Source: an uncultured Mesorhizobium sp.
Lineage (GTDB): Bacteria; Pseudomonadota; Alphaproteobacteria; Rhizobiales; Rhizobiaceae
Length of the DNA stretch: 5,709 bases
Assembly (NCBI GenBank): GCA_950071955.1
Contig: CATMOC010000273.1
Coordinates: 1-5,709 of the forward strand
Direction of reading: 5' to 3'
Shown here: positions 3,242-5,709 of the stretch, one piece after another
Numbering within the stretch: the first letter of the stretch is position 1
Layout: the number at the start of each line of letters is the position of its first letter
Made by a program: the position numbers and the translations under genes
The notes under the pieces: model-generated
What the model was told of the DNA's origin: nothing
Database searches by the model: none
The model's input: only the letters and a program-made list of their open reading frames with translations

Positions 3242-4216
3242 ATGACCAAGAAGCACGCACCCGTCATCATCGTCGGTTCGGGGCCTGCCGGCTACACCGC
3301 CGCGATCTACGCGGCACGCGCCATGCTCCGGCCGATGCTGATTGCCGGCATGCAACAGGGCGGGCAGCTGATGATCACGACCGACGTGGAAAACTATCCC
3401 GGCTTCGCCGACCCGATCCAGGGGCCGTGGCTGATGGAGCAGATGATGAAACAGGCTGAACACGTCGGCACCGACATGGTCAGCGACATCATCGTCGAGG
3501 CAGACATCGCCAGCAGGCCGTTCCGGCTGAAGGGCGATTCCGGCACCGAATACACCTGCGACGCGCTCATCATCGCGACCGGCGCGCAGGCGAAGTGGCT
3601 GGGCATCGACAGCGAGGAGACCTTCAAGGGCTTCGGCGTGTCGGCCTGTGCCACCTGCGACGGCTTCTTCTACCGCGGCAAGGACGTGGTGGTCATCGGC
3701 GGCGGCAATTCCGCCGTCGAGGAGGCGCTCTATCTCTCCAACCTCGCCAGATCGGTCACAGTCATCCACCGGCGCGACGAATTCCGCGCGGAGCGGATCC
3801 TTCAGGACCGGCTGTTCAAGAAGGACAACATCAAGGTGCTGTGGGATACGGTGATCGAGGAGATCGTCGGCGAACCGGCCAAGCCACCCATGCCGCCGTC
3901 CGTCAACGGCATCCGGCTGCGCAACAAGAATACCGGCGAGATCAGCGACCTGTCGATCGACGGCGTGTTCGTAGCGATCGGGCATGCGCCGGCGGTCGAA
4001 CTCTTTGCCGGCAAGCTGAAGCAGAAGCCGAACGGCTATCTCTGGACAGCGCCCGATTCCACCCGCACCGACGTCCCCGGCGTCTTCGCAGCGGGCGACG
4101 TGACGGACGACATCTACCGCCAGGCGGTGACGGCGGCCGGCATGGGCTGCATGGCGGCGCTGGAGGCCGAGAAATACCTGGCCGAGATGGAGACGCATCG
4201 CGAAGCGGCCGAATGA
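3242..4216 (+). CDS. trxB: thioredoxin reductase (NADPH)
   Basis: A 324-residue low-molecular-weight thioredoxin reductase, complete and of normal length. It is a cytoplasmic FAD enzyme that passes electrons from NADPH to oxidised thioredoxin through a redox disulfide. Seen directly: the FAD-binding GSGPAG at 12-17, GGQL at 40-43, IIATGA at 110-115, the active-site CATC (C136 and C139), the NADPH-binding GGGNSA at 153-158 with HRR at 176-178 (which favours NADPH), and the second FAD motif AAGDV at 283-287 with RQA at 293-295. Nothing essential is missing. It begins a probable two-gene operon: the LysR gene starts 32 bp after its stop on the same strand, and the stop codon itself overlaps an in-frame ATG (4213) of that gene. 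Pairing with a redox-linked LysR regulator suggests an oxidative-stress unit. Confidence 0.97.
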   Translation: MTKKHAPVIIVGSGPAGYTAAIYAARAMLRPMLIAGMQQGGQLMITTDVENYPGFADPIQGPWLMEQMMKQAEHVGTDMVSDIIVEADIASRPFRLKGDSGTEYTCDALIIATGAQAKWLGIDSEETFKGFGVSACATCDGFFYRGKDVVVIGGGNSAVEEALYLSNLARSVTVIHRRDEFRAERILQDRLFKKDNIKVLWDTVIEEIVGEPAKPPMPPSVNGIRLRNKNTGEISDLSIDGVFVAIGHAPAVELFAGKLKQKPNGYLWTAPDSTRTDVPGVFAAGDVTDDIYRQAVTAAGMGCMAALEAEKYLAEMETHREAAE

Positions 4217-4248: not shown

Positions 4249-5145
4249 ATGCCGTTCGACTGGGACAAGCTGCGTGTGTTCCACGCGGCAGCCGAGGCAG
4301 GGTCCTTCACTCATGCCGCGGAGCGGCTCAATCTCTCGCAGTCGGCCATCTCGCGCCAGGTAAGTGCGCTGGAGCACGACATCGGCGTTCCGCTATTCCA
4401 CCGCCACGCGCGCGGCCTGGTTTTGACCGAACAGGGCGAACTGCTCTACCGCACCGCCCACGACGTGCTGGTCAAGCTTGACAGCGTGCGCGCCCGGCTG
4501 CTCGAGACGACGGAGAAGCCGACGGGCGTCCTGCGTGTCACCACCACCGTCGGGCTCGGCGCGGGCTGGCTCACCCAGCGCGTCCAGGAGTTCCTGGAGC
4601 TCTATCCGGACGTGCAGGTCCAGCTGCTGCTCGCAAACGAGGAACTCGACCTCACGATGCGGCAGGCCGATTGCGCCATCCGCCTGCGCCAGCCGCAGCA
4701 GCCGGACCTGATCCAGCGGCGGCTGTTCACGGTGCATCTGCACGTGTTCGCCGCCCCGGCCTACATCAACCGCTACGGCAAGCCGAATTCGGTCGAGGAA
4801 CTGGACCGCCACAGGCTGGTGACGTTCGGTGAGCCGGTTCCCGCCTTCCTGAAGGACCTCAACACGCTACAGACCTTCGGCATGCCGGAAGGGGCGAGGC
4901 GGCCCGCCGTGCTGCAAATCAACGACCTGATGTCGATCCGGCGATCGGTTAAGGCCGGAGCCGGCATCGCCATGCTGCCGGACTACATGGCAGACAAGGA
5001 TGCCGGTCTCGTACAGCTCCTGCCGGAGATGGAGGTACCCTCCTTCGACACATACTTCGCCTACCCCGAGGCGATGAAGAACCAGGCGAAGCTCAAGGCG
5101 TTCCGCGACTTCCTGTTCTCCAAGGCGCGCAGCTGGTCCTATTGA
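4249..5145 (+). CDS. lsrB: LysR-type transcriptional regulator, LsrB/VtlR ortholog
   Basis: A complete 298-residue LysR regulator. Residues 6-65 form the winged helix-turn-helix: FHAAAEAGSFTHAAERL, then recognition helix SQSAISRQVSALE at 30-42, then LFHRHARGLVLTEQGELLY at 49-67. A linker helix runs to about 90, and the effector domain spans 93-298. I assign it to LsrB (VtlR in Brucella) from the characteristic DWDKLRVFHAAAEAGSFTHAAERL start, the ADCAIRLRQPQQPDLIQR segment at 140-157, the AKLKAFRDFLFSKAR end, and the trxB neighbour. These regulators control LPS genes, oxidative-stress responses and AbcR small RNAs in rhizobia, Agrobacterium and Brucella (recalled). C142 is the only cysteine: V234 and A271 stand where I expect Cys238 and Cys275 of the Sinorhizobium protein. 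No clear terminator follows; transcription may run to the small RNA terminator at 5399. Confidence 0.88.
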   Translation: MPFDWDKLRVFHAAAEAGSFTHAAERLNLSQSAISRQVSALEHDIGVPLFHRHARGLVLTEQGELLYRTAHDVLVKLDSVRARLLETTEKPTGVLRVTTTVGLGAGWLTQRVQEFLELYPDVQVQLLLANEELDLTMRQADCAIRLRQPQQPDLIQRRLFTVHLHVFAAPAYINRYGKPNSVEELDRHRLVTFGEPVPAFLKDLNTLQTFGMPEGARRPAVLQINDLMSIRRSVKAGAGIAMLPDYMADKDAGLVQLLPEMEVPSFDTYFAYPEAMKNQAKLKAFRDFLFSKARSWSY

Positions 5146-5161
5146 GCCGCGTCCCGAATGG

Positions 5162-5237
5162 ATGCATCAAAATGCGGCAGAATGCTGCGATGCACCATGA
5201 AGATGCAGTTGCTTCATTAATGCATAGGTGAAATGCA
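5162..5237. promoter_or_regulatory. cluster of ATGCA words, probable regulator-binding region for the small RNA gene
   Basis: Within 76 bp, ATGCA occurs five times (5162, 5190, 5203, 5220, 5233), twice as the palindrome ATGCAT (5162-5167, 5220-5225), plus two further ATGC. TGCATC (5163-5168) and GATGCA (5189-5194) are inverted with respect to each other, and TTCA (5213-5216) faces TGAA (5229-5232) across 12 bp, roughly the size of a LysR T-N11-A box. The block is much richer in A and T than the surrounding genes and lies just upstream of the small RNA promoter. Binding by the adjacent LysR protein is an inference. Confidence 0.5.
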
Positions 5238-5249
5238 AATCAGTTGCTT
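5206..5249. repeat. 9 bp direct repeat, 35 bp apart
   Basis: CAGTTGCTT occurs at 5206-5214 and again, identical, at 5241-5249. The second copy runs into the -35 element of the small RNA promoter; the first lies about 3.3 helical turns upstream. It may be a pair of protein sites or a duplicated promoter element. Confidence 0.6.
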
Positions 5250-5276
5250 GCCGAATCGGCAGAGCGGGCTCATATA
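5247..5276 (+). promoter_or_regulatory. sigma70-like promoter of the AbcR-like small RNA
   Basis: CTTGCC (5247-5252) and CATATA (5271-5276) are 18 bp apart, close to the alphaproteobacterial CTTGAC / CTATAT pattern. The start would be near 5283, exactly at the foot of the first stem-loop of the small RNA. A perfect palindrome, TGCCG-AAT-CGGCA (5249-5261), overlaps the -35 element and the spacer and could be an operator. Confidence 0.65.
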
Positions 5277-5282
5277 CGCATC

Positions 5283-5399
5283 ATCTTGCTGGCGCATTCT
5301 CCTCCCATTGGCGTCGGCAAGTGTTCCCCTCTGGAGGTTTTACCGCTTTTGCGGCACTTCCATGCCTTGGCCGGTTCCTCTGGATCCGGCCATTTTTTT
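5283..5399 (+). ncRNA. abcR: AbcR-like (alpha-r15 family) trans-acting small RNA
   Basis: About 117 nt with a complete small RNA gene layout. Stem-loop 1 pairs 5285-5295 with 5311-5321 in 11 consecutive pairs (two G-U) and exposes a 15 nt loop holding CTCCTCCC (5299-5306). A single-stranded stretch follows with a second pyrimidine motif, TTCCCCTCT (5324-5332). Stem-loop 2 pairs 5332-5338 with 5356-5362 and contains an inner CCGC-TTTT-GCGG hairpin (5343-5354). Stem-loop 3 is the intrinsic terminator. Three hairpins and two anti-Shine-Dalgarno motifs are the known design of AbcR1/AbcR2, Hfq-dependent RNAs that block translation of ABC-transporter and other mRNAs in Agrobacterium, Sinorhizobium and Brucella. 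I recall AbcR lying beside the LysR gene atu2186 in Agrobacterium, and VtlR activating AbcR genes. Overlapping open frames on either strand lack family resemblance and are not called. The 5' end is estimated from the promoter. Only one copy is visible here. Confidence 0.85.
5368..5399 (+). terminator. rho-independent terminator of the small RNA
   Basis: TGGCCGG (5368-5374) pairs perfectly with CCGGCCA (5386-5392); after a T-T mismatch, TCC pairs with GGA around a TCT loop. Seven T follow (5393-5399). It acts on the plus strand only: the minus-strand side has no T-run after the stem. It probably also ends readthrough from trxB-lsrB. Confidence 0.93.
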
Positions 5400-5430
5400 A
5401 TCCGGAAACTGAAGATCCTCGTCCTGGGCG

Positions 5431-5709
5431 TTACATGAAGAGCGCTTCGCCTTCCATGCCCTGATAGAGCCCGGCCACCTGTTCGCCGTAGCCATTGAAG
5501 AGCAGCGTAGGCACGGTCTCTCCCGTGTGCAGGATTCGCTCCTGGGCCTGGCTCCAGCGGGGATGCGGCACCTCCGGGTTCACGTTGGCCCAGAAGCCGT
5601 ATTCCGTCGGCGCGATCTGTTCCCAGAAGCTGACGGGCCGCTTCTCGACGAAGGAAATCTTCACAACCGACTTGATGGACTTGAAGCCGTATTTCCACGG
5701 CAGGGCGAG
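5431..5709 (-). CDS. msrP: MsrP, periplasmic protein-methionine-sulfoxide reductase catalytic subunit (C-terminal 92 residues)
   Basis: Only the C-terminus is in the window; the frame stays open to base 5709 and the gene begins beyond it. The visible 92 residues open with [14 protein letters not shown] and contain [23 protein letters not shown] and [18 protein letters not shown], the conserved end of MsrP (formerly YedY), the molybdopterin enzyme. With the heme membrane subunit MsrQ it reduces oxidised methionines in periplasmic proteins. The catalytic cysteine and the Tat signal are upstream and not visible. The GTG at 5664 is an internal Val codon, not the start. It converges on the small RNA gene; 31 bp lie between the T-run and its stop, with no terminator of its own that I can see. 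The last residues (EGEALFM) are lineage-specific. Confidence 0.92.

What the first reader, a model, noticed from the sequence alone, without database searches (positions are those of the whole stretch)
5283..5399. Unannotated AbcR-like small RNA gene between lsrB and msrP
A promoter, three stem-loops, an 11 bp stem presenting a CTCCTCCC loop, a second single-stranded pyrimidine motif and a seven-T terminator lie in order in a gap with no credible protein gene. The pairing and the terminator are seen directly. Membership of the AbcR/alpha-r15 family follows from known architecture and from the LysR neighbour.
Basis: partly seen in the sequence, partly recalled or inferred. Interest (0 to 1): 0.85.

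Follow-up and report, generated by a model that had tools for sequence, protein, structure and literature searches.

The report
AbcR-family small RNA beside lsrB
This stretch matches, end to end, the known AbcR family of bacterial small RNAs, and is predicted to be switched on by the neighbouring LsrB-type regulator and to turn down nutrient-uptake proteins; it is an ordinary member of that family, but its regulator lacks the cysteine reported to matter for oxidative-stress resistance, so its trigger may differ from that in model rhizobia.

Summary
Window 5283-5397 (+) matches Rfam ar15/AbcR (RF02345) over the whole model at 51.4 bits (cut-off 40). It carries both published AbcR pairing motifs exactly: CUCCUCCC in the loop of an 11-bp hairpin, and single-stranded UUCCCCUC. 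It ends in a terminator hairpin and seven T. The published LsrB/VtlR operator GCAT-N3-TG-N3-T lies at -61 to -49, its position in Sinorhizobium. The RNA's core motif lies downstream of lsrB in 77 of 80 named relatives. The genus is Aquibium. It is a new member of a known family, predicted to repress mRNAs of ABC-transporter binding proteins: in a sister genome 9 of 39 such gene starts carry an exact match of 8 or more bases to the motifs, against 3 of 87 controls, although a pairing-energy test showed no difference. Differences from the models: a nested hairpin in stem-loop 2, one copy in three of four same-genus genomes (Rhizobiaceae are said always to have several), and an LsrB without the equivalent of Cys273, which Agrobacterium LsrB needs for H2O2 resistance. 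That cysteine changed repeatedly in the lineage while RNA and operator stayed. No transcript was tested.

The parts
5283..5399 (+). predicted AbcR (ar15) small RNA gene
   Evidence: RF02345, 51.4 bits, model 1-112 of 112 at 5283-5397; fold z -5.64
5285..5321 (+). stem-loop 1: 11-bp stem with 15-nt loop
   Evidence: changes on both sides of pairs among 37 relatives
5299..5306 (+). aSD1 / M1 motif CTCCTCCC in the loop of stem-loop 1
   Evidence: sequence; identical to S. meliloti aSD1
5324..5331 (+). aSD2 / M2 motif TTCCCCTC, unpaired between stem-loops 1 and 2
   Evidence: sequence, fold, identical to S. meliloti aSD2
5332..5362 (+). stem-loop 2 with nested hairpin 5343-5354
   Evidence: nested hairpin in the folds of 37 of 37 lineage sequences
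5368..5399 (+). terminator hairpin (5368-5392) and seven T (5393-5399)
   Evidence: simple terminator scan negative
5222..5234 (+). predicted LsrB/VtlR operator GCAT-N3-TG-N3-T at -61 to -49, inside a TGCA-N9-TGCA dyad 5221-5237
   Evidence: consensus
5247..5276 (+). predicted sigma-70-type promoter: CTTGCC 5247-5252, CATATA-like -10 at 5270-5276
   Evidence: read from sequence against the consensus quoted; E. coli-type scan negative
4249..5145 (+). lsrB/vtlR-type LysR regulator, predicted activator
   Evidence: Pfam HTH_1 and LysR_substrate; no NCBIfam equivalog cut-off reached; name by synteny and by homology to lsrB beside abcR in relatives
3242..4216 (+). trxB, thioredoxin reductase (context)
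   Evidence: TIGR01292, 401.5 bits over its cut-off
5431..5709 (-). msrP 3' part, convergent neighbour (context)
   Evidence: NF003767, 149.4 bits against a cut-off of 207; the gene is cut by the window edge

Best explanation
The segment 5283-5399 matches the AbcR (ar15) small-RNA family from end to end and would be transcribed, as a predicted RNA of about 117 nt, from a promoter likely activated by the adjacent LsrB-type regulator, after which it likely silences mRNAs of ABC-transporter binding proteins by pairing its two anti-Shine-Dalgarno motifs with their ribosome-binding sites. Shown from sequence: the family match, both motifs, the fold, the terminator, the operator match at -61, the order trxB-lsrB-abcR, an hfq gene in the genome, and more exact motif complementarity at binding-protein gene starts of a sister genome than at control genes (not so by pairing energy). 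Inferred from published work on AbcR in Sinorhizobium, Agrobacterium and Brucella: LsrB activation, Hfq dependence, block of translation. Untested here: transcription itself.
For: Rfam ar15 at 51.4 bits, full length; fold z -5.64; aSD1 and aSD2 identical to those dissected in S. meliloti and containing Brucella M1/M2; operator exact at -61, and at -61/-62 exact in 19 of 31 and with one mismatch in 9 of 31 family-model loci, exact in 57 of 77 and with one mismatch in 20 of 77 named loci; core motif within 2.5 kb downstream of lsrB in 77 of 80 named loci, 72 of 80 over the Rfam cut-off; 14 of 26 predicted pairs keep pairing through changes on both sides; two Hfq-family genes; seed enrichment at binding-protein starts 9 of 39 against 3 of 87, p 0.0013, 0 of 300 shuffled seeds as large.
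Against: No expression data. Pairing-energy target test without difference (AUC 0.492, p 0.45). In the own genome only 3 of 25 binding-protein starts have a run of 8 or more, 13 of 25 of 7 or more. The longest seed match (12 bases) lies at a control gene. RNAalifold's consensus does not draw stem-loop 2 but pairs part of aSD2 with GGAG. The A/U-rich stretch before the terminator, described as conserved and a potential Hfq site, is here only TGCCT. E. coli-type promoter and terminator scans negative.
Confidence: 0.82

Rival explanations
1. The segment is mainly the 3' untranslated region and terminator of lsrB: the RNA is a read-through or processed 3' end, not an independent gene.
For: It lies on the same strand, 141 nt after lsrB, and its terminator would also stop lsrB transcripts.
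Against: Operator match and promoter-like boxes lie between lsrB and the RNA at fixed spacing; in some relatives 1.9-2.4 kb separate lsrB and the RNA while operator and RNA stay together (L045, L057, L093).
Confidence: 0.06
2. It is a decaying, silent AbcR copy.
For: Its ar15 score (51.4) is well below those of Rhizobium-type members (up to 127 bits).
Against: Motifs, stems, terminator and operator are intact; the low score is shared by the whole lineage, whose pairs covary.
Confidence: 0.04
3. It belongs to the related suhB/MmgR family of the same clan rather than to ar15.
For: One relative (L072) and the sister genome's second copy are called suhB by Rfam (the latter below the cut-off).
Against: On the window ar15 wins over the clan's other families, and the suhB model (77 positions) starts at the aSD2 region, so it has no aSD1 hairpin (alignment).
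Confidence: 0.03
4. The segment encodes a small protein.
For: Open frames of 64 and 78 aa cross it on the + strand and one of 142 aa on the - strand.
Against: Relatives differ by length changes in the loops that are not multiples of three, while stems and motifs are kept.
Confidence: 0.02

Closest known systems
AbcR1 of Sinorhizobium meliloti (alpha-r15; PMC3712013, PMC8844928, passages)
   Same: Identical aSD1 and aSD2; three-domain fold; LsrB box at -61 to -49; gene next to lsrB
   Different: Nested hairpin in stem-loop 2; no tandem AbcR2 beside it; downstream neighbour msrP instead of an ArsR gene; the A/U-rich stretch before the terminator is reduced to TGCCT; the LsrB has one cysteine instead of three
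AbcR1 of Agrobacterium tumefaciens under VtlR (PMC7486931, passages)
   Same: Order trxB-vtlR-abcR; proposed VtlR box GCAT-N3-TG-N3-T
   Different: Single copy here as far as held; the regulator lacks the Cys273 equivalent (PMC11975290, passages)
Mesorhizobium-lineage ar15 RNAs (72 of 80 lsrB loci)
   Same: Fold including the nested hairpin, motifs, operator, link to lsrB
   Different: In many Mesorhizobium more than 700 nt lie between lsrB and the RNA
suhB / MmgR (RF00519, same Rfam clan)
   Same: Shared core GUUCCCCUCUGG region and terminator (alignment)
   Different: No aSD1 hairpin in the model; ar15 is the clan's best match on the window

Membership tests
AbcR / alpha-r15 (RF02345) | Match to the covariance model over the curated cut-off | tested here: met
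   51.4 bits against 40, positions 1-112 of 112
[quoted passage not shown]
   CTCCTCCC 5299-5306, unpaired in the fold (motif)
AbcR / alpha-r15 (RF02345) | aSD2/M2 motif single-stranded between stem-loops 1 and 2 | tested here: met
   TTCCCCTC 5324-5331 unpaired; RNAalifold's consensus would pair part of it
AbcR / alpha-r15 (RF02345) | Rho-independent terminator | tested here: met
   Hairpin 5368-5392 and seven T; the simple scan did not report it
AbcR / alpha-r15 (RF02345) | A/U-rich single strand before the terminator (described as a conserved potential Hfq site; a described trait, not part of the curated cut-off) | tested here: inconclusive
   Here 5363-5367 is TGCCT; most relatives have A-rich stretches such as CAAACT
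AbcR1 sub-type | LsrB/VtlR operator upstream and lsrB as neighbour | tested here: met
   Exact box at -61; lsrB 141 nt upstream
AbcR / alpha-r15 (RF02345) | Several copies per genome (stated for Rhizobiaceae and Brucellaceae) | tested here: inconclusive
   One copy in G000, which is 70% complete; one in G002, G003 and G004, two in G001
AbcR / alpha-r15 (RF02345) | Discrete transcript, Hfq binding, repression of ABC-transporter mRNAs | not testable with these tools
   Only indirect: hfq genes present; seed enrichment
suhB / MmgR (RF00519) | Best-scoring family of the clan on the window | tested here: not met
   ar15 is the clan's best match
ar14 (RF02344) | Match over the curated cut-off | tested here: not met
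   18.7 bits against 58.8

The most novel reading that the evidence does not exclude
In the Aquibium-Mesorhizobium lineage the LsrB-AbcR1 circuit runs without the thiol redox switch proposed for LsrB: the critical cysteine was lost repeatedly while the RNA and its operator stayed intact. AbcR1 would then answer a signal other than oxidation, such as a ligand of the LysR domain, and its operator would be a TGCA-N9-TGCA dyad rather than the published shorter box.
Probability: 0.3. Interest if true: 0.5.

Novelty: new member of a known kind. Interest (0 to 1): 0.3.

Why it matters
It puts AbcR-type control of nutrient uptake, linked to lsrB, across the Mesorhizobium-Aquibium lineage (77 of 80 loci), where one survey of M. 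huakuii reported that these RNAs had not been found (that genome was not checked here). It also offers a natural experiment on a question that the S. meliloti paper leaves open, namely how far oxidation of LsrB cysteines governs AbcR1 transcription: here the operator and the RNA are kept although the cysteine reported as critical is absent.

Tried and rejected
Duplex-energy target test: no difference between binding-protein genes and other genes (AUC 0.492, p 0.45). In the same script the exact-match count did differ (runs of 8 or more: 9 of 39 against 1 of 63). Because the start calls of the 'other' genes were crude, I repeated the exact-match count with domain-anchored control families and did not repeat the energy test. 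Both results are reported.

The idea that Rfam misses the Mesorhizobium-type AbcR: rejected, 72 of 80 loci pass the cut-off.

A second AbcR copy in the own genome: the weak hit at C336 (19 bits, E 0.29) has no LsrB operator and no lsrB beside it and folds differently, so I take it as chance. The sister genome's second copy finds only the window's own RNA in G000 with a good score, but G000 is 70% complete.

A cluster of ATGC words upstream of the operator (5162-5203): not conserved in relatives, set aside.

The first run of the synteny script used a wrong lsrB frame. It was replaced, and nothing from it is used.

Full report
WHAT WAS CHECKED. The finding proposes an AbcR-like small RNA at 5283-5399 between a LysR gene and msrP, and names a covariance-model search as the test. 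That search gives RF02345 (ar15) at 5283-5397, + strand, 51.4 bits against a gathering score of 40, E 1.3e-8 for the window, model positions 1 to 112 of 112. A permissive search of 5100-5500 finds no unrelated family near its cut-off (next listed: ar14, 18.7 bits against 58.8; one lower-scoring match of the same clan was left out by the tool). The 119 bases from 5281 fold at -49.2 kcal/mol; 200 dinucleotide shuffles average -32.1, sd 3.03, z -5.64, none as low.

ANATOMY. In the minimum-energy fold stem-loop 1 has an 11-bp stem (5285-5295 with 5311-5321) and a 15-nt loop holding CUCCUCCC (5299-5306). UUCCCCUC (5324-5331) is unpaired. Stem-loop 2 (5332-5362) encloses a second 4-bp hairpin (5343-5346 with 5351-5354). 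A terminator hairpin (5368-5392) is followed by seven T. The two motifs are letter for letter aSD1 and aSD2 of S. meliloti AbcR1/2 (PMC8844928, passages) and contain M1 CUCCCA and M2 GUUCCC of Brucella (PMC5461406, passages). The E. coli-type promoter scan and the simple terminator scan found nothing. Read against the alphaproteobacterial consensus CTTGAC-N17-CTATAT quoted, CTTGCC at 5247-5252 and a CATATA-like -10 at 5270-5276 fit by eye. The A/U-rich stretch before the terminator that PMC3712013 calls conserved and a potential Hfq site (passages) is only TGCCT here (5363-5367).

NEIGHBOURS. 4249-5145 is a LysR-type regulator (Pfam HTH_1 and LysR_substrate). It reaches no NCBIfam cut-off among the 25 families shown, so the name LsrB rests on synteny and on homology with the genes beside abcR in relatives. 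trxB (3242-4216) precedes it, the order described for vtlR in Agrobacterium (PMC7486931, passages). msrP converges from the right (it is cut by the window edge and so below its cut-off). The own genome has two Hfq-family matches over the cut-off.

OPERATOR. The proposed VtlR/LsrB box GCAT-N3-TG-N3-T, which lies between -61 and -49 in S. meliloti PabcR1, is found at 5222-5234, that is -61 to -49 of 5283. Of 31 loci fetched with the family model, 19 have an exact box at -61 or -62, 9 have one mismatch at -61 and 3 have none there; one of those 3 is the chance hit in the own genome. A full-length lsrB relative lies upstream on the same strand in 23 of the 31, and msrP downstream in 10 of the 31. 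In 77 named relatives 57 boxes are exact and 20 have one mismatch. Around the box, TGCA-N9-TGCA is present in 73 of those 77; their whole 449,213 bases hold 78 such matches. In the family-model loci the dyad is complete in 14 of 28 (3 of 31 left out beforehand: L002, L014, L031). I infer that the dyad is the operator in this lineage.

DISTRIBUTION. The organism belongs with Aquibium: two same-genus genomes (G003, G004) have contig lengths equal to those of A. carbonis and Aquibium sp. ELW1220. With Rfam's model 25 of 61 genomes (own plus 60 relatives) have a match over the cut-off. With a model built from 37 lineage sequences (the window is among them) 42 of 61 match at E 0.01 or better: 34 of the 37 of the same family (none in G009, G010, G014) and 8 of 24 of other families, at 26.9-40.2 bits; several weak matches, inside the family too, may not be AbcR proper. 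Of the best 80 of 472 lsrB-encoding stretches in named genomes, 77 have TGTTCCCCTC within the stretch held downstream, 2.5 kb at most (not L047, L048, L083), and 72 pass the Rfam ar15 cut-off (the misses are L047, L048, L072, L082, L083, L099, L101, L110). In many Mesorhizobium more than 700 nt separate lsrB and the RNA, and Mesorhizobium sp. L-8-3 has three tandem copies. A survey of M. huakuii states that Smr15C1/C2 (AbcR1/2) were not discovered there (PMC5596092, passages), whereas M. loti is listed among the genomes of the original alpha-r15 alignment (PMC3712013, passages). So the family's presence in this lineage is known in outline.

STRUCTURE EVIDENCE. On 37 sequences thinned at about 90% similarity from 91, RNAalifold predicts 26 pairs, 14 of which have at least one sequence with both sides changed and the pair kept. 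It does not draw stem-loop 2 but pairs part of aSD2 with GGAG, in columns that hardly vary. Folded one by one, 37 of 37 form stem-loop 2 with a nested hairpin, 37 leave aSD1 unpaired and 34 leave aSD2 unpaired. In Rhizobium-type loci such as L007 and L013 stem-loop 2 has a plain loop. The nested hairpin thus looks like a trait of this lineage.

TARGETS. In the sister genome G001, listed as 100% complete, I compared gene starts of ABC-transporter binding proteins (PF13458, PF00496, PF00497; 40 of the 55 matches listed for G001, those given as loci) with three control families (PF00106 30 of 56, PF00126 30 of 34, PF00171 28 of 28 matches). One of 40 and one of 88 were dropped for want of a usable frame or start. 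Exact complementarity to the aSD1 or aSD2 regions within -40 to +20: 6 or more bases, 20 of 39 against 33 of 87 (p 0.11); 7 or more, 15 of 39 against 13 of 87 (p 0.0041); 8 or more, 9 of 39 against 3 of 87 (p 0.0013); 9 or more, 3 of 39 against 2 of 87 (p 0.17). Of 300 shuffled motif pairs none gave as large a difference at 7 or at 8; the 16S tail gave no difference. Against this: a test by duplex energy found no difference (AUC 0.492). The exact-match count stood in the same script and was carried forward because it differed. In the own genome 3 of 25 binding-protein starts reach 8 and 13 of 25 reach 7 (26 of the 28 loci fetched were given to the script and one was dropped; no control genes there). 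The longest match of all, 12 bases, lies at a control gene (L191). This supports the target class but does not prove it.

THE REGULATOR'S CYSTEINES. In A. tumefaciens LsrB, C144 and C273 are the cysteines shared with S. meliloti and B. abortus. Replacing C273 by serine, but not C144, C236 or C244, gave H2O2 sensitivity like that of the deletion (PMC11975290, passages). I did not align that protein itself: the numbering is matched by a constant offset of two, and relatives such as L005 have cysteines at all four places 142, 234, 242 and 271. The window's LsrB has one cysteine, at 142, and alanine at 271. Among 103 LsrB proteins (window, 22 from G loci, 80 named; a few genomes occur in both sets) Cys142 is in 103 and Cys271 in 32; the rest have Ala (61) or Val (10). 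On a tree of 52 thinned proteins the label needs 9 changes; well-supported branches force at least 5; 0 of 500 shuffles are as low. Changes may be losses or gains; I read them as losses because the outer Rhizobium-type group has the cysteine throughout (10 of 10). The operator is exact in 46 of 60 loci without Cys271 and in 11 of 17 with it. So operator and RNA persist without the cysteine. Whether AbcR1 in these species still answers oxidation is open; the S. meliloti paper says that the influence of this modification on AbcR1 transcription must be investigated. The set is biased towards the window's relatives.

SECOND COPY. G001 holds an unlinked relative (C1:4676724-4676834; 75.5 bits with the lineage model; 33.4 with ar15, below the cut-off; 36.1 with suhB, below its cut-off). 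Its best LsrB-box match upstream has two mismatches, at -89. A search with it finds no counterpart in the own genome but the window's own RNA; that genome is 70% complete. G002, G003 and G004, each listed as 100% complete, have one match each.

VERDICT. It is a new member of a known family, with a lineage-specific stem-loop 2 and a regulator that lacks the cysteine of the proposed redox switch. Searches for prior mention: AbcR1 with AbcR2, LsrB with AbcR1 and LysR, ar15 names with Mesorhizobium, AbcR with Mesorhizobium, LsrB with cysteine, Aquibium with small RNA (none). None of the passages I read treats the missing cysteine; I did not open every listed paper.

Noticed in passing
window 4249-5142, residue 271 of the protein: LsrB has Ala where A. 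tumefaciens LsrB has the functionally critical Cys273; the cysteine is present in 32 of 103 relatives and changed at least five times on the tree.
   Followed up: partly
L181:1525-1635 (G001:C1:4676724-4676834): A second, unlinked AbcR-like RNA in the sister genome, below Rfam's cut-offs for ar15 and suhB and without an exact LsrB box.
   Followed up: partly
L066 (Mesorhizobium sp. L-8-3) 3494-4177: Three tandem ar15 copies downstream of lsrB.
   Followed up: no
loci such as L045, L057, L093 (Mesorhizobium, Aminobacter): 1.9-2.4 kb lie between lsrB and abcR, yet the operator stays with the RNA.
   Followed up: no
window 5191-5207 and 5162-5203: A second TGCA-N9-TGCA dyad 30 bp upstream of the operator, in a cluster of ATGC words that relatives do not share.
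   Followed up: partly
G000:C8:51-239 and G000:C201:1167-1358: Two Hfq-family genes in the same genome (81.4 and 109.4 bits).
   Followed up: no
L026 (G005) and L029 (G035): AbcR next to msrP (54 and 240 nt away) and with an exact operator, but without a full lsrB directly upstream.
   Followed up: no
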